Assembly: GCF_001632365.1 (NCBI RefSeq)
Contig: NW_024468541.1
Coordinates: 12,324-76,323 of the forward strand
Direction of reading: 5' to 3'
Length of the DNA stretch: 64,000 nt
Source: Laetiporus sulphureus 93-53
Lineage: Eukaryota > Basidiomycota > Agaricomycetes > Polyporales > Laetiporaceae
Shown: in pieces, positions 1,809 to 25,754 of the stretch
How the letters are laid out: each line of letters starts with the position of its first letter
Numbering within the stretch: the stretch's first letter is position 1
The notes under the pieces: generated by a model
What the model was told of the DNA's origin: nothing
What the model saw: only the letters and a program-made list of their open reading frames with translations
The model's database searches: none
Position numbers and translations under genes: made by a program

Positions 1809-3391
1809 ATGGATCTCCTCCCGAGTACATAGTGCCGTGCTCTTATCGTGACTCAATTCTCTTACAACTGACGCCGCTGCACAGATGCCGCCATTGAATC
1901 ACTGAAACAGGATGCCTCGAGCGATAAAAAGGATATCTGCATCATAGGTGCAGGTCCCGGAGGGTTGGCCGCACTGCAGATCATCATGGAGAGTCCGCAG
2001 TACAAAGAGGGACTATGGCATCCGACGGCATTCGAGGAGCGAGACAAAGTCGGCGGTATATGGTGCGTATGCGTCCGCTACCCATCCTTCTCTTTTGCGT
2101 GACTGCACACATCTCTAGGGTTCCTGCCCCGCCGAAAGACGACCCGCCAATCACGCCTCTGTACGACTCACTCACGACGAACCTCCCGCACCCCATCATG
2201 TGCTATGACTCCCTGCCATTCCCTCCCTCCACCGCGCTCTTCCCGCATGCCGTCGCCGTAGAAAAGTACCTCGCAGACTTTGCCACGCACTTCAATCTCT
2301 TTCCGCACATCCGCCTCGAGACTACTGTGCTTGGCATCGACTGGGATGCGAGCACCGCGAAGTGGCGGGTCAGCGTGAGCAGCGGCGAAGAGCACGCGTA
2401 CGACCTGCTCATCGTTGCAAACGGGCACTACCGCGTGCCGCGTTACCCCGCGACGCCCGGCATCGCCACGTGGATCGCGGCGGGCAAGGCGATGCACTCC
2501 GCATGGTATCGCCACCCAGAGCACAAGGGCCGCACCGTGCTCGTCGTCGGCGGCGGGCCGAGTGGGCTGGACATTTCCGCCGAGTTGCGTGGTGTGGCGC
2601 GTGTGGTGATCCACTCCGTCACCGATGGCGTGCCCGAAGACAGCGATGACGGCACGTTCAAGCGGCGCGGGCTCATCACCGAGTACCTCGATGTTGGCGA
2701 AGGAAAGGTGGTGTTCGAGGACGGCTCGACGGAGACGGGCATCGATCACTGCATTGTTGCGACGGGCTACCAGCACCACCAGCCGTATTTTCCGCCGTCG
2801 CTACTTCGTGTCGCGGTCCCGCCACCTGTGCCTCCGATTCCACCGACGCTGTACAACTCGACGTACCACCTTTTCCCGCTCGCACGGCATCTCTTCCCAC
2901 TATCGAAGGACTTTCCTCCATCACGTATCTGCTTCTTGGGGCTGCTCAAAGGCGTCGCGCCTCTTCCGCTTATGGAAGCCCAGGTCCGCGCAGCGCTCAA
3001 GATTTTCGCAGAGCCAGAACATTTCGACTCGACGCAAGAATCCATCGGCGTGATCGCGCGGTACGAGGAGCTGCGCGCGCGTGTGGGTGCGGACGAGCTC
3101 CGCATTGCGGCCACGTGGCACATCTTCGCGCCGCAAGAGCAGTTCGACTATCGCGACGAGCTACATGCATGGATCGGCGAAGAGGATCGCGTCCCGGCAT
3201 GGGTGCGCGAGATGTATGACAAGCGGGACGTGCTGAGAGCGGAGTGGCGGGACCTGGAGCGGCTCGGTGAGGCGGACGAGTGGGTGCACGGTGTTGGCGA
3301 GGGCGGTATGGATGAGTGGGTAGAGATGATGCGCAAGTTGCTGCGCCGGGCGGAGGATAGGAAACGAGAGGAGTGCAAAACCAGGCTGTGA
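1809..3391 (+). CDS. Flavin-containing monooxygenase, copy 1
   Basis: Likely an FAD- and NADPH-dependent monooxygenase that oxygenates a soft nucleophile or ketone; the substrate cannot be read from sequence. Model: exons 1809-1824, 1885-2062 and 2119-3391, 488 aa. The ATG at 1809 was chosen because an in-frame stop precedes exon 2, and because the first intron (donor GTACAT, acceptor GCACAG) is conserved in copy 2. Motifs: FAD-binding GAGPGG at residues 27-32, NADPH-binding GGGPSG near 209-214, and the FMO-type ATGYQ near 279-283. An H-S-A-W-Y-R segment before the NADPH site fits the FMO signature region loosely. Length suits the family. No signal peptide or membrane segment is evident. It lies head-to-tail with copy 2, and the minus-strand gene remnant begins about 95 bp downstream. 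Family assignment is firm; the role, perhaps secondary metabolism or detoxification, is inferred. Confidence 0.9.
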
Positions 3392-6077: not shown

Positions 6078-8560
6078 ATGGTTCACCTTCCGAGTACGTA
6101 GTGCCGTGCTCTTATCGTGATTCATAGCTCATGCCGCTGCACAGATGCCGCCATTGAATCACCGAAACAGGATGCCTCGAGCGATAAAAAGGATATCTGC
6201 ATTATAGGTGCAGGTCCCGGAGGGTTGGCCGCACTGCAGATCATCTTGGAGAGCCCGCAGTACAAAAAGGGACTATGGCATCCGACGGCATTCGAGCAGC
6301 GAGAAAAAGTCGGCGGCATATGGTGCGTATGCGTCCGCTACCCATCCTTCTCTTTTGCGTGACTGCACACATCTCTAGGGTTCCTGCCCCACCCACGGAT
6401 GATCCACCAATCACGCCCCTGTACGACTCATTGTTCACGAACCTCCCACATCCCATTCTGGGCTACGACTCACTGCCCTTCCCTCCCTCCACCGCGCTCT
6501 TCCCGCATGCAGCTGTCGTAGAAAAGTACCTCACAGACTTTGCCACTCACTTTAATCTCTTCCCTCACATTCGCCTCGAGACAACTGTGCTCGCCGTCGA
6601 CTGGGACGCGAGCGCGGCGAAGTGGCGAGTCCGCGTGAGCAGCGGCGAAGAGCACGCGTATGACCTGCTCATCGTTGCGAGCTCGCACTACCGCGTGCCG
6701 CGTTACCCCACGACGCCCGGCGTCGACGCCTGGATCGCGGCGGGCAAGGCGACGCACTCCGCATGGTATCGCCACCCAGAGCACAAGGGCCGCACCGTGC
6801 TTGTAGTTGGCGGCGGGCCGAGCGGGCTGGACATTTCCGCCGAGCTGCGCGGTGTGGCGCGTGCGGTGATCCTCTCCGTCACCAAGAGCGAGCACGAAGA
6901 CAGCGAAGAAGGCACGTTCAAGCGGCGGGGGCTTATCACCGAATACCTCGATGTTCGCGAAGGAAAGGTGGTGTTCGAGGACGGCTCGACGGAGACGGGC
7001 ATCGATCACTGCATTCTTGCGACAGGCTACCAGCACCACCTGCCGTTTTTTCCGCCGTCGCTACTTCGCGTCGCGGTCCCGCCACCTGTACCTCCGATTC
7101 CATCGACGCTGTACAACTCGACGTACCATCTTTTCCCGCTCGCACGGCACCTCTTCCCAATATCGAAGGACTTTCCTCCATCACGTATCTGCTTCTTGGG
7201 GCTGCTCCAAAACGCCGCGCCTCTTCCGCTAATGGAAGCCCAGGTCCGTGTAGCGCTCAAGATCTTCGCAGAGCCAGAACGTTTCGACTCGACGCAAGAA
7301 GCAAACGGCGTGATAGCGCGGTACGAGGAGGTGCGCGCGCGCGTGGGTGCGGACGAGCTTCGGATTGCGGCCGCTTATCACGCCTTTGAGCCGCACGACC
7401 AGCAGTTCGACTATCGCAACGAGCTACATGCATGGATCGGCGTGGAGGATCGCGTTCCGGCATGGGTACGCGAGATGTATGACAAGCGGGAAGTGCTGAG
7501 AGCGGAGTGGCGGGAGCTTGAGCGGCGAGGCGAGGCGGACGAGTGGGTGCACGGTGTTGGTGAGGGCGGTGTGGATGAGTGGGTAGAACTGATGCGCAAG
7601 TTGCTGCGCCGGGCGGAGGATAGGAACCGAGATGAGGGCAAAACCAGGCTGTGAGATCGCTGTTTCATTGCAGTTACATCTGCTTTTCACTCGACCCTAG
7701 ACGTACAACACGAATAAATGCGTGCAATAACCTTACGAAATGAAGGGATATGGAAAGAACGAAGGTACGGCTACAGATAATTACTATGCCAGATCCATCT
7801 GCAAATGCATTATTCGCTATATGCGGTGGCTGCCAAGCTGAGCAATCTCACCTTCATGTCCCCATCGCTTCTGGTCAAGATGGTGTCATGTTCACTGCAC
7901 TTGGGCAATAAGGAGGGCTCTAGCCCAAACTGGGCATAGTCTCCTAACCGAATCTTCTGTAGAAAAGTCGACATATTCTGCTCCTGCTCGTCAAGCCATT
8001 TCTTTGCTTCGTCGGCTGTCTTCGGCGGTGGAGGCTGAGGTGCTGAGAGGGCGGCTCTGACGTCCTGCGCTAGTTCTTGACGTTGCTCAAGGGTAAGGAA
8101 ATTTGGCTTTTGCTCTTCTTCAATATCTGCATTGGGAGATCGTGAGACTGGAATCTTTAGGAACATCAAGGAACTTGCCTTGGTCCTCGAGGAACAGCGA
8201 TGCATGCGCACGGTGGGCCTCAGGAACCGGTATGTGTGCTGGCAATTGCCAGAGGGTGGAGGGCTCCGGAGAGCATGATGACCCAGGGGTGGGTAATTGT
8301 GTTCGGGCTGATTCATTTACGGAGCTACTCCGTTCCCTCTGTAAGTGCCAATAGGAAATAAGTGCATTGCACCGACCGGCACAGATGGACATACCACTGG
8401 AGCAGAGGCTCGCTCAAACTGGATCCACGTTTGCACGTCCTCGTAATGTACACGCAGACGTTTTGCCCATATCCTGACCATTTCATCATTGGGCAGAGGG
8501 AACTCATTCAACAGCACCTGTAGGCTGGGGATGACCCCTGGGCTGTTTTTGAAAGAGGGG
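5750..8560. repeat. Tandem duplication, unit 2
   Basis: Counterpart of 1420-4285. It contains FMO copy 2 and the more complete convergent gene, whose 5' exon (to 9031) extends beyond the duplicated part. The unduplicated 5' end suggests unit 2 holds the original gene and unit 1 the derived, 5'-truncated copy. Confidence 0.85.
6078..7654 (+). CDS. Flavin-containing monooxygenase, copy 2
   Basis: Paralogue of the gene at 1809-3391 with the same architecture: exons 6078-6093, 6145-6322 and 6379-7654, 489 aa. The first intron starts GTACGT and ends GCACAG; the second is nearly identical to that of copy 1. The FAD GAGPGG, NADPH GGGPSG and ATGYQ motifs are all retained. Differences are scattered substitutions plus one extra codon near the C-terminus (HDQQF versus QEQF), so both copies appear to be under constraint. 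Several changes lie between the FAD and NADPH sites (N-G-H versus S-S-H before Y-R-V-P), where substrate specificity could shift. Same inferred role as copy 1. Confidence 0.9.
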
Positions 8561-9031: not shown

Positions 9032-9738
9032 CTGTTCGTTGAGTAGCTAGGTGGAGGATGCAGAGGGGATGGGCAGGGCAGGGGGTCGTGGCTGCAGCAT
9101 GGGGCGCTCAAGTGATGTCGGTCTCCTTTATCGCCTGTCAAAAGCGCAACCCATCCATTCGGTTATGTGCCCATTCTGAGACCTCGGTGTTTCGAAAATT
9201 TAATTGTGAAACCCCGCTGCAGCGTGTTTATCTGCAACCAGGTGTACGATGCATGGTCGGTTATACCGACATTGATCGCATGGCCGACATTGATCGCATG
9301 GTCAAATGCAGCCCCTAAAACATTACTCCGGTAGGTCTTTCGTACTGATTCTCTCTCACGCAGACCGCGCGGATCGATGCAATTCGGATCCGGGCCGCTA
9401 TCAATGAGCTAAGACAAAGTTTCATTTTCTATGGTTAGGATCCTTCTAGATGGGTCGTCACATTTTTCAAAGCGTTAACTCAACCTTCCAGCCACTGTAA
9501 GTCACCCTTAAATAACCCGTTCGAATTTGACTGAACATTACCGGTAATTTACGTAGGCTCATTAGCGCTCGTTAGCTATTTCTCTTCGCTTAGTTGCTAT
9601 ATACAGATCACTCTGGACCTTTCTGGTACAGTTCTACAGTATGGATGTCTGATGAGAAACAATAGGTAAGACTTCATGTCGCTTGGGCGAGATGCGGAAC
9701 AAGCATTTAACACTACGCGGACATGAAGGAAGGCGCAC
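9032..9738. other. Intergenic; short direct repeat only
   Basis: No gene recognised. Contains a perfect head-to-tail 18-bp duplication (9266-9301). It lies between the 5' end of the homeodomain-like gene and the 3' end of the CYP505-type gene, so it should hold the promoter of the former and the terminator of the latter. Confidence 0.4.
9266..9301. repeat. Perfect 18-bp tandem duplication
   Basis: The unit CCGACATTGATCGCATGG occurs twice head to tail (9266-9283, 9284-9301). No flanking structure suggests more than local slippage. Confidence 0.9.
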
Positions 9739-12700
9739 TCATTCGAAAATATCGGTGGCATAACGGCCCTGGATGGCACGCGAAAACATCTCCACGGCTT
9801 CCGCATCGTCAACACTCTGTGTCTCCTTGATAATCTTGATGAGAACCTCTTTGATTCCTTGGGCGATAGCGCGAGTTCCACACGTATAGAACTACGCACG
9901 TATGCGTCAGTGGTATCTCCGCGTCATAGATGATAGGCTACCGGCTACCCACCTTCCCGTTCGCTTTGTAGGCAGCGTCAATTTCCGCGCGGTCATGCCA
10001 CGCTCGGCTGCGAATGATGTCAATGCATATCAAAGACAGCGACCTGACGAAACGCACTCTTGCACATATTTGCACCCGGAAGACTCCTCCGTCAAGCGTG
10101 AAAACGCCGGCCTGACATCCACGATACCCAGCTCGGTCCACTCCTTCAGATCCGAATCTGCATATAAATAATCCTCCTTCGGCGTCCTGCATCCGAAGAA
10201 GAGCAGCGACCTCGCAACCTCGCGCCCCGCCTTCTTCTGCATCGCACGCTCCTGCAAGAATCCGCGCATCGGCGCGAGTCCCGAACCCGCGGCAAACATC
10301 ACCATCGGCACCGTCGGGTCTGACGGCGGGTGGAACGCAGCGGATGACGCGCGCACTGCGATTTGCACTTTGTCTCCCGGGCGCAGTCCGGCGAGGAATG
10401 TCGAGGCTACTCCAAGGAAGGACTCCTTCCGCCCCGCGATAGACGGTTTGTCGACGACGCTCACGGTGAGCGAAACGCGCTGGGCGTCCCAAAGCGGCGA
10501 CGAGGATATCGAATATTGTCGGACTCGCATGGAGGGCAGCATCTGTAGGTATGTCTCAAATGGTAGCTTGATTTCTGGGTAGTCCTCGAGGATATCGAGC
10601 ACGCTGAGCCGCCTGACGAGGACCTTCTCGCCGTATGTCGTCAAGAGCTCCTGTAGTGCTTCAGCGGGTGCCTTCTCAGCAGTCATTAAAATCCGGAGGT
10701 CTCGAGTCGTTGCAGGCTGCGATAGCTCCACATAGCCTGAGAGCAGCGCAGACACGCTGATGGGACGATCGACAGGTAGCGGTGTGGGACCAGCAGACGA
10801 CAAGAGGACCTATGGTGGGCTCAACAATCAATTTGCAAGCAAATAGAAGCGAAGTAGATCCGTACCTCTTGCTCAGCAGACAGCCCGAACCGGGCAATCG
10901 CTCGGTGAACATCACGAGGAGGATTGGAGGGCAATCTATGGAAACAGTTCTTAGCTACAAATCAGCGATCTCGCAAATCATGGCGCATACATGGCAAGAT
11001 AGTCTCCAGCACGGGCAGCCATACCCTCCGGAAGCTCGAATTCTGATCGAACAGATCAACATTACGCCCACAATGCACGACTATGCACGTACCTATATGT
11101 CTCTTGGGCGGCGCGCTCGGTGCAGTAAGCAGCCTGTTCTCAATGACCGTTCCCAGAGCAGCATCGGGCTGCCGGAGGACAGAAGCCCTGAAGGTCCCCG
11201 CATCTACCACTTTGATCTCCAGTCCTGCAAAGCCACCTGCCGCAGACGGGGGTGTCGCAGTCGCGCTGTATTCCTATCAACGAGCACGGACGAGTCAGTG
11301 CAAAGGGCGTATCCTAGGCACCGCATACACCCACCTTAGACAGCGTCTCCCAGAGCTTCGCCTCCCACTCATCGAAGACCTCAAAGAATTCCGGCGAGCT
11401 TGCGTCACCCGCTCCGCGAGGCACGAGCCGCCTGCCTCCGCGCTCTTCCAAGGTATCGTCAATTAGTGTGGGTATCCGCTGATATGTCAGGACCCAGTCG
11501 TGGTTGCCGCATCCGAACACGGCGTAGTTCACGTTCGCGAGCTCCTTGCCCTTGAGGTTCCTGATCCACTCCACGAAGTGCGCCGCGTTGTCGGCCGGCT
11601 CGCCTGCATAAGCAGCAGTCCAACATAGGCACCCCGAAAACAAAGGGTCATTCTCACCTTCAAATGAAGCGGTGATGATCACAACCGGCCCGTCGCTGGG
11701 CAACTTCTCGCAGAAGGAGTCCAAAGTACCCATCTTGGTACAAAAGCCTGCGTGCCATCAGGTCATCGTCCACATATAGCCTTCAGAACACGCACCATGA
11801 GCAGCCGCATCGCTCGCCACCCTCTGCGCAAACGTCTCCGACGTGCCCGTATTCGAACCGTACAGTACATACAGCCACTGTCTCGGCTCCACGCCCGTCC
11901 CCGGGACCGCGGCGCGCGTCGGCTGCTTTGGCTCTGTGCCTCTGCGCGCCCGGTGCAGCGATGAGCTGGGCATCGCGAGCGGCACCGCAGCGGTGCGCGG
12001 GATTGCGCGAATGTGGAGGTCCTTGGGCTTGATGGTGAGCGTCTGCTTTATCTTGAGCTCGTAAGAAGGGTCGTCCATGACGAGGTCGAACCGCTGGAAG
12101 ACGTAGGCCATGACGAGCATCATTTCTTGCCAGGCGAAGGCGCGACCCTAGACGAAAGGAGGGTCTCTAAACAGGAAGAGAACGAATTGGGAACGATGCG
12201 TACAATGCATGCTCGCATACCGAAGCCAAAGGGTTGCCACGCATTAGGCTAGTCGCAGTTAGTAAAAGTGAGGTTGTGGGGCAGAAGACACAACATACGG
12301 GTAGTGCCTCGAATTTACCATCCAACATGCGTTCCGGACGGAACTCCTCAGCCTGAGCAGCAAGAGTCAGTCTCAACGGTCCATAGCACACAAGATATCA
12401 TGCATACATCGTCACCCCAGACCTTGTGATCCCTCATCGCCAAAGGTGAGTTGATAACGACGGTCTGTCCCTTCTTGATCGCGTACTTGCCGCCTCCGAT
12501 CGTCGTGTCCTCGCTTGAGTCCACCGTGCGCATCGGCGCTGGCGGGTTGAGGCGAAGCGACTCGCGCAGACACGCTGACCCCACCGAGCTTCAGCGGAGT
12601 GTCCTGGAAAGTATGTGGAGACCGCGCACCTGTGAGGTAAGGCAGCTTGTTCATATCGCCGAGCTGGGGCGGCTGATCGCCGAGGACCTCATCGAGCTCC

Positions 12701-14149
12701 TCGCGCAGCTTGCGCGCGGCTTCGGGGTTCTTGAGAAGGTAATACAGCGTGAACGAAAGTGTCGCTGCACGAGGATCGGATCAATTATCCTGCTGGTATG
12801 CAGAGCGAACGTACATGATGTGGTCTCATGGCCTGTAGACGATAAGAATCAGCGAGCAGCACACATTGGGCAGATATTGGACGTTACCGGCAATCAGGAA
12901 GGTGAGCAGCTAAAGTGAATCATGTCGTGAGTGGGTACAGAGGTCCGGGCTTGAAGTGCACTCACGTTATACCTGACGGCCTCGTCTGAGAGGCCCTTGC
13001 CTGTCTTGGGGTCCTTACCAAGCAGCATCTTGTTGAGCAAGTCGTTTCTATCGACCGGGTTCGCCTTGCGATCCGCAATGACTATGATCACCATTTAATG
13101 TTAATGAGGAAGATCCGCACAAGTTGAGAAAATTGACAGTACTTTCGTTGGCCAGATCCGCCATGATCTTGATGTCCTGCTCATACTTGGTATTATAGCC
13201 CATCACGGAGGTAACGATGGATGGGCGGAAGGCGCGGTGGCCGGATTCTATGAGAAAGTCGACCATTGCTTGGACGAAGGGGTGATTCGTTTCCTAATGA
13301 ATGCATGAGCACGTTTGCATAGTCAAAGATCATGCAGGTGCCAGACAGACCCGGTAGAAGGAATTCAACCTGCATATATGAATGTGAATCTCTCTTGACC
13401 CGAAAAAGGCAGGGACTGCGAACCTGTGAGACATCGAGCATAGTGCGATCGTATCAAACGTCAATCGCGTGAAGTCCTCCGCGGGGTTGATCACCGCTCC
13501 GGGGCCGAACCTAAAGCGTGATGAGCATCTCTCAACGGCCGACGATCAATGCTGATGTACCGTTCCCATTTCATGATGAGTTGCGATGCGATGTCCATCA
13601 TGTCGTCGAACATGCCGCGAATCGCGGTCGTGCCGAACGCGGGCATCAACAGTCGGTCTGCGGTACGGGAGTGAGCAGCAGATCGGGAGCTTGTGGGACA
13701 TGAAACCTACGAGCGATCCCCCAGTTCTCCTCGTCGGGTCGCGCCTGAAAGTAGATCAGCGAGATCCACTCGGCCTGTGGCAATGAAACAGTTCATACTG
13801 TGAAGATGCCGTCGCCGACGCCATTGCGAACTTGCTCTAGGCTTCCTCCGATGTCCTTGAAGAACCGCTTGTCATCGCTGACCTCGTTCAGAAGCTCATA
13901 TGAGCTGACGACAATCAGCGTCCTCGCTGTGGTCAAATCAGCATACAGGAACACACAGCCTCGCCGACACTTACAGAATTGATGCAGCTCGTATATTTCA
14001 CCGTACTGGCGCGCCAAAAGAGCAAAGGAGCGAAGTGGGACCTCCTTCTCGATAGAAGTAACGTGGCCGAGGAAGGGCAGCGAGGGCGGGCAGGGAATAG
14101 GTGTGGTCATCTTCGAGTGCGGGATGAGTGCGGTATCCGATGTACTCAT
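9739..14149 (-). CDS. CYP505-type self-sufficient P450 (P450-CPR fusion)
   Basis: A single-chain monooxygenase: heme P450 domain fused to an NADPH-P450 reductase, typically hydroxylating fatty acids at subterminal carbons. I can thread about 23 exons (roughly 1,050 codons) from the ATG at 14149 to the TGA at 9739 with consistent phases. The heme part shows P-F-L-G-H-V near the start, A-G-H-E-T-T-S in the I helix, E-S-L-R, and the cysteine motif [10 protein letters not shown], which an intron (GTACGC...CTAG) splits after its Ile. The reductase part shows an FMN loop [11 protein letters not shown], then V-F-G-C-G-N-H-D-W, an FAD segment R-Q-Y-S-I-S-S-S, an NADPH segment [11 protein letters not shown] and a C-terminal F-Y-T-C-G. 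No break or missing catalytic residue was found and no membrane anchor is visible, as expected for a soluble fusion. It shares strand with the fatty-acid dioxygenase at 17572-20512, so an oxylipin role is possible. Confidence 0.93.
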
Positions 14150-15825
14150 GCTTCATCCACATCGCGTCTATATAGCGCTCTCGCAGAACACCGGGGGTGG
14201 CAGGGTATGTTACGCACGGTGTGTGATTCGTGCATCGCCTTCATAGCGCTCTGGCATGATGGAGTGCGCGCCAGCGATATGTTGTAGCAGAGCAGAGATG
14301 GTTACGCTGCGAGTCCGGGCGTCGGGCGGAAAATGTATGCGCGATGCACTGCGCTCTACATGCCTGGAATGGACAAAATCCCCGAGCCCGACTGGATGCA
14401 CGTCGCGGCGAGGTGATCGTCTCTGATTTCTCGGTTCGGACGGAACGCTGGAGACACCGATGGCAGACACGGCCACAACGCACCAACGGGATACATGGAG
14501 GCCTTGACATACAGCAAATGACAACTTTTCGTCCCGGAGACACCTGCTACGAGCCTGGCACGGTCGGTTTCAACGCAGACGGTCGAGAGGACATCACGGT
14601 GCACGGTTGTCCAGCACAAGCTGAGTGGTTGTAAGCGCTCGGCAACACCCGGTCGGTGGCTGGAATTGAAAGGCCGGCTCATGCAGTTGCACCTCCTTAC
14701 TCCTGCCAATACCCATGCCATTGATGCATTGGCCGGCTTCTTCCATCGTATGATTAAAACTCTCTTGCAGCAAAACCTCTCCAGTTCTTTCGGGTCATCA
14801 ATTTAATCATCTCAGGTCTCGCGATACAAACGGCGCCGCCAGTAAGCCAGATGGGAATGCTTATAAAATCTGAATTATACCAAGTCCCGCTTACTACCCT
14901 CGCTTGCTATGGACGGACCACTGGTTTCCCATGGCTTCTCTGACGCTGCTTCTCACTGCGACTGACGTCTTGCATGATACACTCAATCATCCGGTTGACC
15001 CCAGCAAGCGGCAACAACATACCTGAGGTCACTCGAGGCGTACAGTCACCTTCTGCCTCGTGCGATAATACTTCTGTCTCCGCACGCTTGGTGTCTTTGA
15101 AGTCTAGAACGTCTGTGGCTTCTCATTATCTGGACTTACTCCGGCCACGAGTCTGTAGACAGGAGGACAGGTGCGTGCACTCTATTGATGGCCGGTCTCT
15201 GATCCTCGCTGTATCACAAGGAGAAACGATTGGGACACGTCGCAGATCCAGGAATTTTAACATTGCGAATCTAGTCGACCACACACGCTATAAGAGCGAA
15301 GGATCATTTTGCTGTGTCCTGAAGCTGATGAAGAACGGGCAAATGCTGTGCTCGCCTCATCAAAGAAAAGTGCAACCGCGATGAGTGGCGCAACGCCACC
15401 GACGCATCTGTGACGTGACATACGCGTGGTGTCACGTCCAGATTCGCGGCGGCCAGACGCAGGAGCTGTGTGTGGGCTGTCGCGATTGACGTTATCTCGC
15501 TCAAATTCGGGTCCTCAACAGGCAAGAGTACGTGCCAAGATATTGCGTGCGCAAAACTTTGAAGAGGCCTGCGAACAACATGCGTCGACTGAGCGGCATG
15601 CAATGAATACGGCTGTGGAGAGAGCGCAATCACACCCGAAAAGGTGATATCTCAGTAAGTTGCGCCAGTCTCGCAATCACGCCCTCTTGAACGCACGTCC
15701 CACATTTCACTTTTTTGGAAGGGCGATCAGCCGCATCAACAAGAACCAGAAAGAGAAATATATAGACTCTTGTTCTGTTGTCTGCAGTCAGAGATGCTGC
15801 TCTGCACCGGACAGCAAAGTACGTA
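14150..15825. other. Intergenic, no supported gene
   Basis: Promoter side of the CYP505-type gene and 3' side of the next minus-strand gene. Several overlapping frames on both strands (for example 15304-15633 minus) show no motif or splice-supported extension. A TATA-like AAATATATAG lies near 15758 on the plus strand but no gene follows it. Confidence 0.35.
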
Positions 15826-16632
15826 TCACACTAATAACGAGGGAGGCAAAGGCGTATAGGTTTGGTCAAGGAGGGAGAGGTTCCCGCTCATGGACGCGAG
15901 CTGCTTCACATCATCGTCTCCACCGTCCTCGCTTCGAACTCTGGAGGCGACCAAGTCCAGCACGCGAGACTTGTCCGGGTGCCATGCGGGAATCGCGTTC
16001 TCGATACCACGCAACACTTGGGAAGTCAAGAAGCCGAGGTGATCTAATGAGACGTCAATATTGTCTGCATTGGCTCGGTCTGGCAGGCGTACCATTTGGG
16101 AGGTTCGAGGACGCGAAGGCATCTCGGAAACGCAGCGACGTGCGGCACTCTAGTGACCAGGAGAGATATCCTGAAGCGACCAGGCCGCGCTCGTCGTTGC
16201 TCGGCAAGGTGGTCATGTACCAGCTCGACGTGATATTCAAGTCACTGACCGGAAGATCATTTGCAATTGTCCATGACGAGCGCATGGGAGAGCATCCTAC
16301 TTGGCCTAATACGTGGAATGCAAGCGGAACTATATGACCATCCGAGTAATGAAGCGAGATCACAAAGATGTAGAACGACCGTTGGAAGTCGGAACTAAAA
16401 CAATTATCGGTGAGCATGAGCTACCCCTCGGTAAGAGTAGAATACCGGTTCACATGTCAATGCTCTTTGCCATGCTCCACAATAACAGCAGTTGCGGTTC
16501 TAGCCGCTCTGTAGTGGCATGGCCTGCTTGGGCGGAGGATAGCACAGTAAGGAAGAGATTTGCGTCATCGGGAAAGTGCGATTGAGCATCTGGAGAAGCG
16601 ACCACTCGGATATCTTCAAGACTAGTCAGCAT
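15826..16632 (-). CDS. Uncharacterised protein, three exons
   Basis: I do not recognise the family. A clean model runs ATG 16632 to stop 15826 with exons 16454-16632, 16093-16394 and 15826-16043. The introns are GTGAAC...TTTTAG and GTACGC...CATTAG, the phases match, and the product is 232 aa. The protein is of mixed composition with no signal peptide; a hydrophobic stretch (S-F-Y-I-F-V-I-S-L) lies near residues 63-71. The C-terminus is polar and acidic (E-D-G-G-D-D-D-V) and ends P-P-S-L-L-V. The chosen ATG may be internal, because further exon-like sequence (R-I-V-F-Y-E-A-A-L-A-L-P and onward, about 17110-17190) lies upstream on the same strand but could not be joined. Confidence 0.45.
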
Positions 16633-17571
16633 AAGCTATCTGGGAGCGCATGGACACTTGCTTGTCAATGCCACTGCACTACATGCGTTGAAAGCAAAAA
16701 ATGAAATGATGATAATTAGAACGATCGTTCAGACAAAGAGTACATTCTTTGATACCACTGACCTCATTCCTGCTGGTGATTTTGTGAATCAAGAATGAAC
16801 GTCTGGTGGGACGATGGATGATGGCAAGTGGCGTTGACCTGCTTCGTTCTTATATCCACGCTCACGGCATATCTGGAAGGCTGTGCTCTTTCAGGAGGGG
16901 ATGAAAAGCATAATATCCGAACATACAGTAAGCGACACGTCGCTCAGCCCTTCAGCGTCCTGAACAGCTTTGATTCCACAGAACACCTGATGTACGTACC
17001 ATATTGGACCACACGAACGCTCAAGGATGCCCACATTGAACTGCCCCAGCACCGCAACAAGAACATGTGTTCAAAGCAGATCTGCGACCTCTCATTTATC
17101 GGTATTATTGAAGCTCTAGCCGCCGGCGTGATGTGAGGCGATGAAGACCACATAATCTGTTGGGAGCGCCAGAGCCGCTTCGTAAAACACGATGCGCTGA
17201 GGCTGTTATAGTACAATGTAAGCACCGTGCATGTTGATTGAATGCGAAAAGAGACAGCTCCCATCAGCTGGAAACAGACAAATATGAGCTTCGAATCCAA
17301 GGATACGGACCAAGTGGGAAGTTACCGTCACGGCACACGTGACCGCGTCGCGTCGCGTACGCGTGCGTGTCCAAGCTCAAGTCCTCAAGCTCAAGCTCAA
17401 GCTTCAAAGCTTCATCGGGGAGGTATTTGGCTAGATAGCTGTATCAGATGACATTTCACACGCGGCTCATCGCTCTGGTACGCACAGTGCTCTCGGCATA
17501 TAGTACATCTCAAGACATGGGACTTCTGAATGATAGCAATAGCGGAAGACATGGCCCATGCTCAGGTATAA
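16633..17571. other. Intergenic or 5' exons of the preceding unknown gene
   Basis: The minus strand near 17110-17190 has an open, protein-like stretch (F-Y-E-A-A-L-A-L-P-T-D-Y-V-V-F) that could be an upstream exon of the 15826-16632 gene, but I cannot connect it with a consistent phase. An imperfect AAGCTC-rich microrepeat lies near 17370-17410. There is no cytochrome P450-like sequence here, which matters for the truncated dioxygenase next door. Confidence 0.35.
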
Positions 17572-20512
17572 TCAAACATTTGTGCTGTCCTCTGGACCCT
17601 TCGGTCGCGTCCAGGAGTACTGGTCAACGGGGCTCTGCTGCCATTTCTCCACAGATTCCTTCATCTTCTTCGGCACTATAAGCGGGAACATCGCATACGC
17701 AGAGCCCGCGGGATAGCACGCAGGCAGCGTTCGGAACAGCAACTTCGACAGAATTCCACCGAACGAGCCGTCGTTCTTGTCGACCTGCACGTCCTCGAAA
17801 CCCCATGTCGTCAAATTGAATGCTGTGGGAAGTAGGCGCGTGTGAGTCACCGGAAGTGTACAGCGGCAGAGACTTACGGGTGAGATCAAAAGTGAGGAAT
17901 CGATCTCCGCGCGTAAGGGCGACTGCATCCGCGAGAACCGCGCGCGAAATCGTGAGACCCGCGTACAGGCCAATACCCAACGAACCCTTTGTCTCCTCTG
18001 CCTGCATGCCCACCTTTCATACGCCCACACTACGTTCAACATCTTCTAAGACGAGCAAACAATCGATACGCTCACATAGAGTTCCAACTTGTCGATGTCT
18101 TGATACAGTGCCTCTGCCGCTCTCTAACCCACCGGCCGATCAGCATTGATCCAGCACTGCGCACAACACCGTGAAAGACGTACATGGATCTCCGGATCGG
18201 GGTTCCACTCCTTGAAACTCTTGTACGCTGTTCGGAAAGCGTTCGCAACATCCATTAACATCGGTTGCTTCAACGCTGGAGAGAGCCGTGGACTCACGCG
18301 CCAGGCCCATGAAGCTTCTGAATTCGTTCAGCGAACAAGTCCCCCAGCGGCGCGCTTCCAGGATGCCAATGATTTCAACGACGCGCAGCGCTTCGGGGAT
18401 CCCCCGCGCCTTGAACGCGCTCGCGGGCGTCTCCGTCGCATCGTACAGGATGTTTGAAAGATCAGCTTCACGCATTGCAGCAGGTATCAGCATCACGTTA
18501 GCACACAGGAAAAAGGCAGGAGACCGCACCATCGCTGTACCTCCCGCTCGAGTCGCGTTTGAGGCTGCAGAAGGGGAACGAGAGATACAATGAGAACTGG
18601 ATTACCGTTGGTGGAAGACGAGCACTATGCGGGCACCCACCCGCTGAGCGTCCACTGGCGTAGATCCTTCGGATATCTCTTTACATACTCCTCTATCGCC
18701 TTCCTGAAGTCCTGATCCGTGACCTACTCGCAAAGTACCATATCAGTGCCATCCTACCCACAGGCAGCCTGATTGTATGACATGAAACATGCGCACGCAC
18801 TTGATCAAAGGGCTTTCCTTAAATATGTCCTTAAACAGTGCATTCGTCCAGTCGTTGTCCGGCTGAGAGACCGTGGCATGCCAGCGGCACATCAGATTAA
18901 ACTCAACCGAGACGACATTCCCGTGGCCGCGTGGCGTCCACTCGCGGTTCAGCTCACGCATCGCCTGACGCGCCAATATCAGTTCAGTTCTGCAACCACT
19001 TCACGGACCGTATGCGTACCTGAAGCGGGTCCAACCGCCAATTCAGGCCCACCCGTGTCAGGCCGAGAATCGCGCCAACGTAGTCGCTCAAGATCACCTA
19101 GTACGCATGATGCGTCAGCTCCGATTCCATCTCAGGAAAGCGGCCTCATGCACTTGCCTGCGTAAAGTACGCAGTGTTAACTAGGCGCGCGCTGGAAGAT
19201 CTCCTCGTCTTGCGCCGCGCACGTCTCCTTGCTGAGCGTGGCGGGGTCGGCGTACGTTTTAAGGTCGTTGATCGCGAGGATCTGCTCCGCTACGTACTGC
19301 GGGAGCGGGTCAGGACCCAAGCAGTGGAGACAGAGACACGAGGTCAGGACTCACGTTGTGGTTCCGGCAGAAGAGCACAAGCAGCGCGTCTGTTGAGGGA
19401 GGCATGAACAGCAGACGTGCATCGGCAAACACATCGTCCCACAGACACCCTGTGCCGTCCTTGCCTAGAGTTCTGTCAGCATCAACATCTGCGATACGAT
19501 TCGCAGAAGTGGGCGCGGCACTCACGGCGGACTTTTTCGCTCTCCTCCTGGGAGTTGCCGTAGAGCGGACTCAGGTCGAGGTAGCTGCTCGCTTCGTTGA
19601 CCGTCCATTTGCGCGGATTCGTGTGGAAGAGGCTGTGGATGATGATGTTCGCGAGCGCGAAGAACAGGCTCGAGATGCCTCCTGTGCTCCCGTCAGCATC
19701 GGCCGCACCGGCGAAATTTATATATGGCATACCGGGGTGCTCGACATGTTTGTCCCTCTTTAGTAGCCTGTCAAACACAAGCCCAGGTTCAGGTAGTTGC
19801 TGCGGCGAGATAGGAGTGGTTCCGGGTACAGAGCGCACATAGGGCGTGCGCGCCATTCCGAGGGCAGGGATAAGCACATTGTAGTTGCTGCCATCGGCAC
19901 TGCGGTACGCGTAATTAACGGCGTTGAGCATAGACGGGACGGTTGGGACCGCGATAGTAGGGATCATGAGGAAGCTCATGGGTGGTTGCGGAATGTCCTT
20001 GTACACTGTCAAGGAATTGGATTAGCGAATGCGGAAAATCCGGACGAGCACGCACAGGTGTTGATGAGGACCTTCCCGAGAATCTGGGAAAAGATAGAGT
20101 CCTCAGAGGAGCGGGCGATGACGATGATAACCTTTTCAAGCTATGAGCGAATAGGACGGTACCATCAGCTTGTGCGCGAATGCAGGACAAAGGGCACGTC
20201 TACTGACAAGATAGAGGCGGTCATTTACGCCGCCGCCGGCCATACGTTTGATGGCGTTAATGAACGACGGCTGTATACATACATAAGCTCAGATGTTGGG
20301 GAAGGTTGTCCCCAGTGACGACGTATACGCACGAGGTCAGCGATAGAAAAGCGCTTGCCGCGGATGAGGCTCCGTTCGATGTCCTGGATGCTACTGGAAA
20401 GAATGGGGTGCACGGGCAGTGCATCGTCCATGAAGAAAGATGCGTCGGTGCCGGCGACAATATCGGCGGCATCGTTGAGGGGGCTAAGGATGCGGTTCGC
20501 GTTGACGTTCAT
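17572..20512 (-). CDS. Ppo-type fatty-acid dioxygenase (linoleate diol synthase-like), peroxidase domain only, catalytic Tyr replaced
   Basis: Animal-haem-peroxidase-type fatty-acid dioxygenase of the psi-producing oxygenase family; relatives make 8- or 10-hydroperoxides of linoleate or oleate. About 16 exons, roughly 670 codons, from ATG 20512 to TGA 17572. Family landmarks are clear: the distal haem histidine region L-F-F-A-L-A-N-I-I-I-H-S-L-F-H, then SSYLDLSPLYGNSQEE, and the proximal helix E-F-N-L-M-C-R-W-H. In the family, and in cyclooxygenases, the residue before R-W-H or H-W-H is the catalytic Tyr. Here the codon is TGC, Cys (18887-18889). After the domain-closing region (G-G-I-L-S-K-L-L-F-R-T-L-P, then M-F-P-L-I-V-P-K) the protein stops, where relatives continue into a P450 domain of about 400 residues. 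One intron uses a GC donor (CAG|GCAAGT, near 19157). All exons otherwise remain open, so this is a maintained gene with altered or lost chemistry rather than an obvious pseudogene. Confidence 0.88.
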
Positions 20513-21271
20513 ATTGTGAGTTTGCGATGATAGAGGAGGCAAAGGAATGTGGACAGTATACATGCAGATGGAGCGAAGAGGTTTATACGTAGAAGTGGAG
20601 ACGCCCTGGCCATCGATGAGTGGCTGCACAAGAGAGAGCAAAGTTCGGGGAGGCAATTATAGTACGACCAGATTTGTCTCCGCGAGCATCCAAGTAAAGA
20701 TCGACGATCGAAATTACTGCCACGGCACGTCGTCGCGCAAATGACCGACGTTCTGGTGGATGGTTCCTAGCTGCGTCCTTGCCTTCCCCGGAACAATCCT
20801 AGGCGAAATATGGTAGAACGTTCCTCGATAACCCGGAGAATCCGCAGCTTACAACCAACGTGGTCTAGAGCTGAGCGCTGCGCGATGATCATCGCGGCCA
20901 CATGTCCAACATCCAGCTCGAATCTTTCGCTGTTCCGTGGCAGGACAACACCGACCGCGCGTTGTACTGTCTCGTGGCCTGTCGTCCTGGACGGCGCTCG
21001 CTCGATGCGCTCCATCGATGGAGAAGCTTCAGGCTGTTTCTATGAGAATTTAGAGGGTTCCGGACAGACTGGACAACATGCGAATTTTTGACATCACGTT
21101 ATAGTACAGCTTGCACGATGGATGTCTACAATATAGCCGCTACACGTAAGACTGCAAAACGCATTGGCAAAAACAGAAACTAGCTAGGACGTTTTCTCAA
21201 CCGCAACATACCTCGATGTTACTTGTTCCCCACTAAGACCAGATGAACCGCGGCGTCGACGACGAGAAACC
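20513..21271. other. Intergenic, no supported gene
   Basis: Promoter side of the dioxygenase gene and 3' flank of the zinc-finger gene. Opposite-strand frames at 20767-21091 mirror each other and show no motif, so I treat them as chance. Confidence 0.4.
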
Positions 21272-24200
21272 CTACTGCAAAGCGTCGACCAAACTTATAG
21301 TCCAAACGAGCAAATTCGAAACAGGCACACGCACCTCCTCATACACCGCCCCATCTTCCTCGTCCACCGTCCCAAACAACCTCTCACTCCACGAAGGCTC
21401 ACGTTCGTGCTCTTCCCTCCAGCCACAATCAAATCGCGGACTACATTGCGCACTCTGCGCAACCGAACCATGCGACAGCGCCCGCAGATGCTCTCCGACC
21501 CCGAACGAAAACGCGCCCGCCTGGACCGGCGGGAAGAACGCACCCGCAGCTGACGCCGCAGGCGACGAGAACAGCGAGAAGGCGAGGCCACCGGACGAGC
21601 GGGGCGTCGAGAGCGGGATGACGGGCATGGTAAACGCGTCTGATGTGGCAGAGACAGGAATGCGGGGAGTCATTGGGAAGTCTGCCACAGTGGTAGCTCG
21701 GTCCCCGTCTATTACGTCTCGTCCAGCAGCAGTCTTTGCCTGTTGTCTTTCCCACTCCTCCCTCGCCATCCTACGGGCCTCCGCTTCCTCTCTCGCCCTA
21801 GCGACCACCTTGGAATTCTTGCTGATACCTGCAGCATAACAATAAATAATATCTTGGATAGTCGAATGCAGAGTAGTACTCACCTCTCTTCCAATCCAGC
21901 TTGGTTTTTCCCCAGTGCCACTTCAAATGAATCGCGAGCCCGTTCGGCAGCATAAAATTACGAGGGCAGAGCGGGCACTGGTAGAGTTGCTCCACCATGC
22001 GCGTTGGCCGCGCGAACACCTTCCTGCCCGTCCATTCAGACTGATCGATCTCTATGATATCGTCGGTGTGGTCATACGTCTGGCCCTGTTGATCTTGCAT
22101 ATTCCAGTCACCACCCGTAGGACCTGGACACAGCACCGCAGGTGCTCTCGGTGTTCGTTCATCTCGTTCAGAACGCGCCTCGTCGTCGAGCATAGTCTTC
22201 TCCGCCGAGTCTACGTTCGAATTGGAATGGTCTTGCCCGGGATCATGTTCTCCATTTGCAGCATCCTTCTTACCTTCATCCGACTGATCATGATCATCAG
22301 CGCGGTCTTCCTGACATCTTTCCCCACTTCCCCCACCTCCTTCTCGGTCGGTTTCTCCCAGCCCTCCTCCATTCTCAGCGCCTCCAGCACAGTCCCCACC
22401 CTCCCCATTCTCACTTTTAGTATCATCCCCTCTGGGCGACCCATCCACACCCTCCGCCTCATCCTCTGTCTCGTCATCTTCCGTCTCTTCAGCTCCCACC
22501 TCCTTCAAATACTTCTTCAACACACCTTTCCGCCTTTGTAGACGTCTCTGCCCCGCACCAGCCGTCGTCTGCGCAAACATCGTCGACCACGCCTCGTGCT
22601 GCGCGACGCCAACCTCATCACGTCTCGCAGTTCTCATTCTCATCATGCCCGAAAGCGGATGAAATAACGGAGGCGCCATCTGAGATGCATGAGGTGGCTT
22701 CATTGCAGGCATCGGCACGGGTCCAGAAGCTGAGATGGACATGGGCATATGCATGGGCATCGCGAATGGCGGCGGCGGCAGCATCTGCATCGGTAGTGCG
22801 TGCTGTGGAGGAAAGGGAGGAAACATCCCAGGAACCGGCGAGAAACTGGGCAGGCAGTGCGCTGTAGAAGTACTGTTGTGCGGCCTGGTCGACAGCGGAC
22901 CTGCAACAAATGCAGAAGCCATACTAGAAGGTGAATAGCTGAAGTTGGGAAGAGATGAGAGCGGAGCGGGCCGTGGCTGCACCGCCTTGTCGGCGTGAGG
23001 TCGCGCGTGCATCGAGGAAGGTGTTGGTGCGCGACGGTCATGTAGAGGAGGAGTATCCACTGGCCGTCCGGGATCGCCACGCTGAGGCATCTGCATATGT
23101 ACAGGCATGACCTCCCTAGGCGAACACGCCATTTCAATTGCACTCCCCGTGATGAGCCCAGCGCCGCCTGTACCTTGGCTCTGCAAATTATCCACAGGCA
23201 CATTCACGCGATATAACCGCGACCTACCAACCGGCCGAGGTTCTTCACGCCAGTCGCCCATGACCGAATTAGCAGAACCAAGGATGTTCTGCTGGAAATG
23301 TGCTTTTAGAGGAGCTGAGCCCGCTTCAAAACCTGGTGGGCCAGAGTCCATATCGAGAGACACATGTTGACCACGAACGCTAGCGAGCACTTCAGCACCG
23401 CTGTGTCCGCCAATCATATTGCCTCGGAAACGAGCCCCTGTATGCGCATCGCGTATGTGTGCATGCTCAATCTCCCTGGGACGTGCTATGGGATTGTACC
23501 GCATGTCCGAGACTGAACGCACAATTCTTTCCGGAGCCTGTGGAGACTGTGCCGGAGTAAGCACGTAAGGGCTTCCGCTAGCAGAATGTGGGACAGGCGG
23601 TGTATTTGTCCCTTGCTGGATCGAATACGGATGTCTGAAACGATATCCGATTGGAGGGTGTGGGGTAGGTGTGGCAGCAGAACGCAAGGTGGGATGGATA
23701 TCTGGGTTTAAAGAAGGTGGAGCAACTGCACGTAACGCTGGTGGCATGGCGCTGTGTGGAGCAGAAGGCACTGCAAGACCTCCGCCTCTCAAAGAGAAAG
23801 GCTGAAAGTCAGACGGAACGGAAGCCTGCATCGCGGGCTGTCGAGCGTATTGAACTATCACAGGATTAAGAGCTCGCGTCGTGCGCAGAGATGCATCTCG
23901 CAGCGACGGTTCTCTTTCATGTCTCCAGAACGACTCTGCGGTGTTCTGTCCCTGTTCGGGGACGGAAACGGCAAAGTAAGGGACGGACGTCTGGGCATCT
24001 GGCTGAGACGAGAAAGCTGGGTTGGTATGACCATAGCAATAAACAAAAAGGAGATCGACGCACCACAGGGATATACAGACTGGTGGATGATGATGGCACC
24101 TCGTCGACTGCGCAATTCGCAGCAATTGCTTGAGCTTGCTTAGCGCCAGCAGCTTTGGGGGCATCTGTACTCGGTAGGCCATTCTCTGCTTGCGAAGGCC

Positions 24201-25413
24201 GCGAATGGTTGCCTCCGGCACTCGCATCATATCGCACTTGGGTCTCGGTATCTTCATTGATCTTTCGTCGTTTATCCCTCTTCTTGCGAGCACCTTCTTC
24301 CGTGCCGTTCTCTTCCTGAGCTTCCGCTGCAGCATCCTCCTGAACTTCGCGACCTCGTTTCGGACTGAGCGGCTGTCTCCCCTTCACATTCTGGGCAGAC
24401 TTAGCCTTCGCATGTCTTCTGGCTTTCTGTTTCTGCGTGTCACGACCGATGGTTCTTTTATCGACACCAGTGCCTAGAGGATGATCGCTAGGTTCCGGGG
24501 CGGCGTTCTCGTCCCTCTCATTTCCTCTGATGTCCCGTCTGCTCTGAAGCCGGGCACTCGATCGCCTCTGTGCGACCGGCACTGGAGAAGCGGAGCTATC
24601 TATCACGACTGTCGATGCCTGCTCTGACGCGCCGTGGACTATGTTGGTGTCTATGGAAGGAAGAGATTCGGTGCGATTCGAGCTATTGGTACCAGAAGAA
24701 GCGACGGGCACAAAGGGCGCTCTTCCAGTAGAACATTCACCAGGGACAGCGTCTGGATCAGCCATCAAGACGGTATCTTGCTCGTTTTCGCGCATATAGC
24801 CAGCTTCATCGGTATCTTCGACGTCCGACTTTGGCTGTGATGGGACATCTGTATGAGAGACGTGCGTCGTCTCTGCTGCGGTTTGCGATACGGATGGGTC
24901 CTCCGTAGAGGCTTTCACATTCTCTGCTGAGAATTGATCCGCTATGCCGTCCAAATTATTCGCCGTAACGATGCCTGCGCTGACTTCTTCGACATCCTCT
25001 CTCCCAGATGCTCCCATGGTTCCTACGTCCCTACCTGCTCCACCCACTTCCACTTTCCCACCCTTCCCATCCTCTGCAACCCATATTGTTGGTGCAAATG
25101 AGCTCTCCCGCGAGCTCCAAACGACATAGGCGTTCTCGGAACCCTGCATCAACTCCTCGGTGCGTGACGGCCGTTTGTGGCCATTGGGAGCACCTGCGAC
25201 AATCAGCGTGTCGGAGGGAGATGGATTGCGGGAAGACGTCGAGGATGAAATAGATAAAGGGAAGGTCGGCGTGGAGGACAGGGAGGTGGAGGGGATGGAT
25301 AGGTCAGATGCGACGAAGCGCACGCGCAATGGAGCAGCACCTCGTGCTTTGCTCGTAGTGCGTTTCGGGCCCATGGAAGGGGTCAGGGTCATTTTGGTAG
25401 AATCGGGGGACAT
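21272..25413 (-). CDS. Large single C2H2 zinc-finger protein
   Basis: Three exons: 24064-25413, 21884-24002 and 21272-21828, 1,341 aa in total, with introns GTGCGT...CTCAG and GTGAGT...GCAG in matching phase. The start at 25413 is the first ATG of the long frame. Most of the protein is low-complexity. The N-terminal third is Ser/Thr/Glu-rich, with a basic K-K-R-D-K-R-R-K patch near residue 395 that could be a nuclear localisation signal. The middle is Pro/Met/His-rich, and a strongly acidic Glu/Asp/Gly stretch precedes the single finger near residues 1125-1145 (C-P-L-C, 12 residues, H-L-K-W-H). A short Arg/Glu helix follows. One finger with long disordered flanks suggests a transcription or chromatin factor, but the target is unknown and I recognise no named orthologue. 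Confidence 0.85.
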
Positions 25414-25754
25414 GCTAGTCTGTGATCACGCTTCAGCATTCATCGAAGAAGATTTCGAGAGCAGACGCACCAATGGACACAATGAGCCAACGACTAGGCT
25501 CGCGTGCGCATGTGTATCGTCCGCCCAGCCACAGAGACGGTGGGATGTATTCGACCAGCAAGCGAGGGGAGAGGGACTTAGGTGAAACTGAACAAGGAGC
25601 TCGCGAATGCCTGGACGATCGTGACGCTCCCCGCGTGCCATCTGTCAATGCGCCCGACAACGTCATAGTGTGGACGGGTGTTGCCGCAACTATGCGCGCT
25701 GCCAACCCAGTGCTTGAAAGCCCAAAGTTGTTGTGACATCGATTTTGTTTACAG

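What the first reader, a model, noticed from the sequence alone, without database searches (positions are those of the whole stretch)
17572..20512. Fatty-acid dioxygenase with Cys in place of the catalytic tyrosine
The proximal helix reads E-F-N-L-M-C-R-W-H. In Ppo/linoleate diol synthases, and in the related cyclooxygenases, the residue three before the proximal histidine is the tyrosine whose radical abstracts hydrogen from the fatty acid. The codon here is TGC (18887-18889), one base from TAC. The histidine, the distal histidine region and every exon are otherwise intact, which argues against simple decay. The protein could be inactive, regulatory, limited to peroxidase-like chemistry, or might use a thiyl radical.
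Basis: partly seen in the sequence, partly recalled or inferred. Interest (0 to 1): 0.75.

Follow-up and report, generated by a model that had tools for sequence, protein, structure and literature searches.

The report
Broken copy of a fatty-acid dioxygenase
A bracket fungus carries a spare copy of a fatty-acid-oxidising enzyme gene in which the key tyrosine has become cysteine, but the gene is also cut short and its reading frame is broken before that point, so it is most likely a recently dead duplicate rather than an enzyme with new chemistry.

Summary
The Cys codon is real: TGC at 18889-18887 (- strand), in EFNLMCRWH. It sits where 120 of 120 listed homologues (best 120 of 640 hits) and 55 of 56 fragments covering the site (the 56th does not align there) have Tyr. 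The claim that every exon is otherwise intact is wrong. Exon 7 is 139 nt, against 141 nt in both paralogues. The frame breaks near 19191 and stops at 19179, upstream of the Cys codon, so as sequenced neither Cys nor proximal His is translated. The C-terminal P450-like half is absent from the 64-kb window. A pocket loop with an otherwise invariant Cys-Pro is changed. The genome is inferred to be Laetiporus sulphureus 93-53. Two full-length paralogues with Tyr lie on contig C19; the window copy is sister to one. Its dN/dS (NG86 0.19-0.20) is close to that between those paralogues (0.18), so most of its history was under constraint and loss looks recent. Best reading: a young pseudogene of a basidiomycete Ppo-like gene. 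A sequencing error at the frame break plus a functional Tyr-less protein cannot be fully excluded.

The parts
17572..20512 (-). Ppo/LDS-like dioxygenase (DOX half) paralogue, 16 exons, 15 introns, conceptual 672 positions with one frame break
   Evidence: Gene model; exon lengths equal those of paralogue P0001 except exons 7, 9, 15 and the truncated last exon
18887..18889 (-). TGC codon, Cys at the catalytic Tyr position (residue 388)
18878..18886 (-). Arg-Trp-His following the Cys; His is the proximal heme ligand by homology
19158..19296 (-). Exon 7 with frame break near 19191; 139 nt versus 141 nt in both paralogues; TAA at 19179-19177 in the frame as sequenced
19098..19157 (-). Intron 7, GC-AG type (60 nt)
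17878..18013 (-). Exon 15, encoding the changed terminal substrate-pocket motif (KGSLGIGLYAG where paralogues have KVPMPGAGLCPG)
   Evidence: motif listed as substrate recognition site in PMC13049297 (passage)
17572..17822 (-). Last exon, ends in TGA in the linker where the paralogues run on into the P450-like half
19526..19681 (-). Exon 5 with distal His motif (IIHSLF), kept

Best explanation
A young, lineage-specific pseudogene of a basidiomycete linoleate dioxygenase (Ppo-like, DOX-P450) gene. Inferred order: an ancestral Laetiporus gene duplicated. One daughter (C19 copy P0002) stayed full-length with Tyr. The window copy lost its P450-like half and its reading frame, and in the same recent interval drifted at sites fixed in the aligned relatives, including the catalytic Tyr. 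As sequenced, translation ends after 328 residues, before the Cys and the proximal His, so no heme dioxygenase is made. Shown here: frame break, missing half, Tyr-to-Cys, full-length paralogues with Tyr. Inferred: the order of events, and absence of function in vivo.
For: Frame break and TAA upstream of the Cys. Exon 7 length differs from both paralogues by a non-multiple of three, while the other full exons equal those of P0001 or differ by three. The best in-frame splice alternative found uses a second GC donor (GCGCCT) and deletes the conserved stretch ARLVNTAYFTQ; all 12 alternatives displayed use at least one GC donor. No match of the C-terminal halves in the window. The DOX half of CcDOX1 alone gave no 10-HPODE in insect cells (PMC9579011, passages). 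The window copy has the most private departures from otherwise invariant sites of the 121 aligned rows: 4, next highest 3, and 98 of 121 rows have none; 4 of 93 sites against 0 for P0001 and 0 for P0002. Two full-length Tyr-bearing paralogues exist. No protein of this locus appeared among the listed hits (best 120 of 640; 120 of 127).
Against: Overall evolution does not look relaxed: NG86 dN/dS 0.197 and 0.188, close to 0.184 for the paralogue pair (ML estimates 0.111 and 0.160 against 0.100; dS near saturation); end branch 0.36 versus 0.33 for the sister copy. At 95%-conserved sites the full-length P0002 is also raised (11 of 197, against 20 for the window copy and 2 for P0001). No stop in the conceptual frame on either side of the break, and all 15 introns still have usable ends. 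The frame break is a single event in a short GC-repeat stretch that could be a sequencing or assembly error. DOX-only proteins exist, e.g. the 665-aa P0013 with Tyr. No RNA data.
Confidence: 0.84

Rival explanations
1. The frame break is a sequencing or assembly error. The gene makes a DOX-only, catalytically dead heme protein kept for a regulatory role (heme or fatty-acid binding, or partner of the active paralogues).
For: Heme ligands and most tested pocket residues kept; purifying selection over most of its history; all introns can be spliced.
Against: Two further changes (loss of the P450-like half, altered Cys-Pro loop) are independent of any error at exon 7. No expression evidence. The DOX half alone of a relative showed no activity (PMC9579011, passages).
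Confidence: 0.09
2. The protein is an active variant: Cys388 (thiyl) or a relocated Tyr at position 561, where the aligned relatives have Cys, carries the radical.
For: A Tyr and a pocket Cys are exchanged reciprocally (Y388C and C561Y); both belong to motifs listed in the substrate-recognition-site table (PMC13049297, passage); the central Tyr, Trp and Lys are kept.
Against: Frame break and missing half as above. Tyr376Phe kills 8R-DOX (PMC13049297, passages). C561Y sits in a loop changed at 7 of 11 residues, so the exchange may be coincidence. The model available has low confidence in both regions and no distance could be measured.
Confidence: 0.03
3. The TGC codon itself is a base-calling error for a Tyr codon.
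For: One base from TAC.
Against: Another pair of otherwise invariant residues in the same gene is also changed, so departures are expected here; read quality could not be examined.
Confidence: 0.04

Closest known systems
Laetiporus sulphureus 93-53 heme peroxidases P0001 (1011 aa) and P0002 (1003 aa), contig C19 of the same genome
   Same: 67.7% and 65.7% identity; same exon order and nearly the same exon lengths through the DOX half
   Different: They have Tyr388, the LCPG loop, an open frame and the P450-like half
Coprinopsis cinerea CcDOX1/CcDOX2 (10S- and 8-DOX)
   Same: Basidiomycete DOX domain with distal/proximal His and catalytic Tyr (Tyr-395/Tyr-407), followed by a P450-related half lacking the heme Cys (PMC9579011, passages)
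   Different: Active; the window copy lacks Tyr, frame and the second half
7,8-linoleate diol synthase / 8R-DOX (Gaeumannomyces), Tyr376
   Same: Equivalent motif YxW, Lys540, Tyr531, central Tyr329 (PMC13049297, passages)
   Different: Window copy has Cys at the 376-equivalent and Tyr-Ala at the 550-551-equivalent
Cyclooxygenase-2 (Tyr385)
   Same: EFN..Y.WH motif by profile; the model of P0001 matches COX-2 best in the PDB
   Different: Distant, 17-19% identity in the top Foldseek rows

Membership tests
Fungal heme fatty-acid dioxygenase (Ppo/LDS) | Homology to the DOX domain | tested here: met
   67% identity over 99% to P0001, which matches PF03098; grouped with the Laetiporus copies, support 100/99. 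The exon-by-exon genome search with PF03098 itself listed only the C93 and C68 loci, not this gene
Fungal heme fatty-acid dioxygenase (Ppo/LDS) | Proximal and distal His, Trp of YxW, central Tyr, Lys540-equivalent | tested here: met
Fungal heme fatty-acid dioxygenase (Ppo/LDS) | Catalytic tyrosine | tested here: not met
   Cys at the column that is Tyr in 120 of 120 listed homologues
Fungal heme fatty-acid dioxygenase (Ppo/LDS) | C-terminal P450-like half (usual in Ascomycota and Basidiomycota members) | tested here: not met
   No tblastn match of the C-terminal parts of P0001/P0002 at E<=1 in the window
Fungal heme fatty-acid dioxygenase (Ppo/LDS) | Linoleic acid oxygenation | not testable with these tools
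   needs an assay
Pseudogene of that family | Disrupted reading frame | tested here: met
   sequencing error not excluded
Pseudogene of that family | Intact-looking paralogue in the same genome | tested here: met
   Coding sequences of P0001 and P0002 recovered on C19 (P0002 apart from its last four annotated residues)
Pseudogene of that family | Relaxed selection | tested here: inconclusive
   dN/dS close to that of the paralogues, but most private departures at otherwise invariant sites
Pseudogene of that family | No productive transcript | not testable with these tools
   no RNA-seq

The most novel reading that the evidence does not exclude
A DOX-only heme protein in which the radical-bearing Tyr has moved from the proximal helix (Y388C) to the substrate-pocket loop (C561Y), giving oxygenation at a new carbon or a thiyl-linked radical chain; the exon-7 frame break would then be an assembly error or a null allele of this one strain.
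Probability: 0.03. Interest if true: 0.8.

Novelty: new member of a known kind. Interest (0 to 1): 0.17.

Why it matters
As a dead duplicate it matters little beyond showing birth-and-death evolution of oxylipin genes in a brown-rot fungus, and as a caution that a lone active-site substitution should be read with the whole exon structure. If the gene proved expressed and in frame in related Laetiporus, it would be a natural test of whether COX-type chemistry can survive without the conserved tyrosine.

Tried and rejected
Alternative splicing around exon 7: 1168 one- or two-intron structures (GT/GC donors, AG acceptors, introns 40-170 nt) were open and in frame. The best keeps 98 of 109 reference residues and drops ARLVNTAYFTQ; the 12 displayed all use at least one GC donor. 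The other structures were ranked but not displayed; donor quality was judged by hand, not by a splice model.

Different residue as catalytic Tyr: rejected; Tyr is invariant at this column in the homologues aligned.

Search aimed at Cys variants: a region-limited search (residues 370-412) returned one candidate, P0241, which has Tyr. It drew few words and is a weak test. Among the 241 proteins fetched, no CRWH, CHWH or CRFH was found. Only the best 120 of 640 and 120 of 127 hits were listed, so weaker relatives were not examined.

Clustering: a scan for clusters of changes private to the window copy did not single out the pocket loop; its strongest cluster was residues 13-47 (9 of 14 sites, reached in 57 of 2000 shuffles; deleted residues are not counted in it).

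Structure: the AlphaFold model of P0001 (mean pLDDT 78.6; blocks 361-390 at 41-56 and 551-590 at 45-57) was too weak for the active site, and no coordinates were available in the Python box.

dN/dS: YN00 failed numerically; NG86 and ML values are given, with dS above 1.

Minor failures: P0002's last annotated residues gave spurious tiny exons in my exact-match splicing script and were ignored. One search failed on a file name and was redone. A motif regex caught the distal-His region; its counts were discarded and the BLAST-based count was used.

Literature: in the listings of five searches I saw no title or abstract start about a Cys at this position. Passages of two papers were read (PMC13049297, PMC9579011). 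This does not show that none is in print.

Full report
Where it is. The window is contig C32 (12,324-76,323) of a 38.6-Mb genome. Two genes on contig C19 of that genome encode public proteins P0001 and P0002, named Laetiporus sulphureus 93-53; the public contig length 552,686 equals C19, and their coding sequences were recovered on C19 by exact matching (P0002 apart from its last four annotated residues). The organism is therefore inferred to be L. sulphureus 93-53, a brown-rot bracket fungus (lifestyle recalled).

The observation. On the minus strand, 20512 to 17572, sixteen exons can be read, separated by fifteen introns of 50-76 nt (14 GT-AG, one GC-AG). Codon 18889-18887 is TGC in EFNLMCRWH. 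In a MAFFT alignment with the 120 listed homologues (of 640 hits) every one has Tyr there. Of 56 fragmentary homologues covering the site, 55 have Tyr and one (P0186) does not align there. The five other Ppo-like loci read in this genome all have Tyr. A profile of 41 homologues aligns the motif with EFNTLYHWH of COX-2, whose Tyr is Tyr385 (whole-chain E 2.2e-25, this stretch alone 0.39). In 8R-DOX, Tyr376Phe abolishes catalysis (PMC13049297, passages).

(1) Exon 7 carries a frame break near 19191: the frame ending ...DEEIFQ (19192) and the frame starting ARLVNTAYFTQ (19190) are not the same, and as sequenced the frame runs into TAA at 19179-19177 after 328 residues. Exon 7 is 139 nt; in P0001 and P0002 it is 141 nt, while the other full exons of the window copy equal those of P0001 or differ by three (exons 9 and 15). 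The Cys codon lies downstream of the break. (2) The paralogues continue for about 340 residues into a P450-like half. The window copy ends in TGA in the linker, and neither paralogue's C-terminal part has a match in the 64-kb window at E<=1; the sequence printed around it (12,000-21,500) shows no N. For CcDOX1, the DOX half alone gave no product in insect cells (PMC9579011, passages). (3) The terminal pocket motif KVPMPGAGLCPG, whose Cys and Pro are invariant in 118 of 118 homologues other than P0001 and P0002, reads KGSLGIGLYAG: of the 11 residues after the Lys, 6 are substituted and 1 is missing (counted by eye). Ascomycete DOXs vary at these two residues (PMC13049297 Table 2), so this change alone would not prove loss, and a scan for clusters of private changes did not single this loop out.

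Tempo. A maximum-likelihood tree of 27 DOX domains (the window copy and 26 of the 120 homologues) places the window copy as sister to P0002 (100/99) within a Laetiporus clade, with end branches 0.36 and 0.33. Over 658 codons NG86 dN/dS is 0.197 and 0.188 to the two paralogues, against 0.184 between them; ML gives 0.111 and 0.160 against 0.100. The gene was therefore under purifying selection for most of its history. At sites where all other rows agree, it has 4 private changes (E300D, Y388C, C561Y, P562A), the most of 121 rows; 98 rows have none. At 95%-conserved sites it has 20 departures of 197, P0002 11 and P0001 2; the 118 others, each left out in turn, have a median of 2 and a maximum of 14. 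My reading (inference): loss of constraint is recent, enough for a handful of changes at fixed sites and one frame break, not enough for stops or broken splice sites.

Rescue routes. The in-frame splice alternatives displayed all delete conserved sequence or use weak donors. A sequencing or assembly error in the short GC-rich repeat at the break cannot be excluded here, but it would not explain the missing half or the changed loop.

Neighbourhood. Downstream on the same strand (about 14.1 to 9.6 kb) lie exons of a P450-reductase fusion (p450, flavodoxin, FAD and NAD binding domains), resembling CYP505 fatty-acid hydroxylases (name recalled). It is a separate gene, not the lost half. On the other side is a long ORF, low-complexity by eye, without Pfam match.

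Verdict. The substitution is real, but the gene is most likely a young pseudogene of a known family. The one point worth keeping in mind is the reciprocal exchange Y388C and C561Y between two pocket positions; with a broken frame it is most economically coincidence.

Noticed in passing
window 9600-14110 (-): Exons of a P450-reductase fusion (p450, Flavodoxin_1, FAD_binding_1, NAD_binding_1), CYP505-like by recall, downstream of the broken dioxygenase on the same strand; integrity not checked.
   Followed up: partly
window 1928-3391 and 6188-7654 (+): Two similar-sized ORFs (487 and 488 aa), both with FMO-like flavin monooxygenase matches, possibly a tandem pair; not compared with each other.
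   Followed up: no
L004 2540-6744 and L005 2426-6594: Two Ppo-like genes on contigs C93 and C68, with YRWH and by eye a P450-like second half, 94-95% identical at DNA level: recent duplicates or unmerged haplotypes.
   Followed up: partly
L026 7609-7508 and 1441-1310: Short extra matches to the P450-like half beside the C19 gene P0002, possibly remnants of further decayed copies.
   Followed up: no
P0013 (Rhodofomes roseus, 665 aa): A DOX-only relative that keeps the catalytic Tyr but has a long branch (0.64) and three private changes at otherwise invariant sites: DOX-only copies may have arisen more than once.
   Followed up: partly
window 21798-24383 and 23917-25425 (-): Overlapping long ORFs (861 and 502 aa), low-complexity by eye, no Pfam match.
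   Followed up: no
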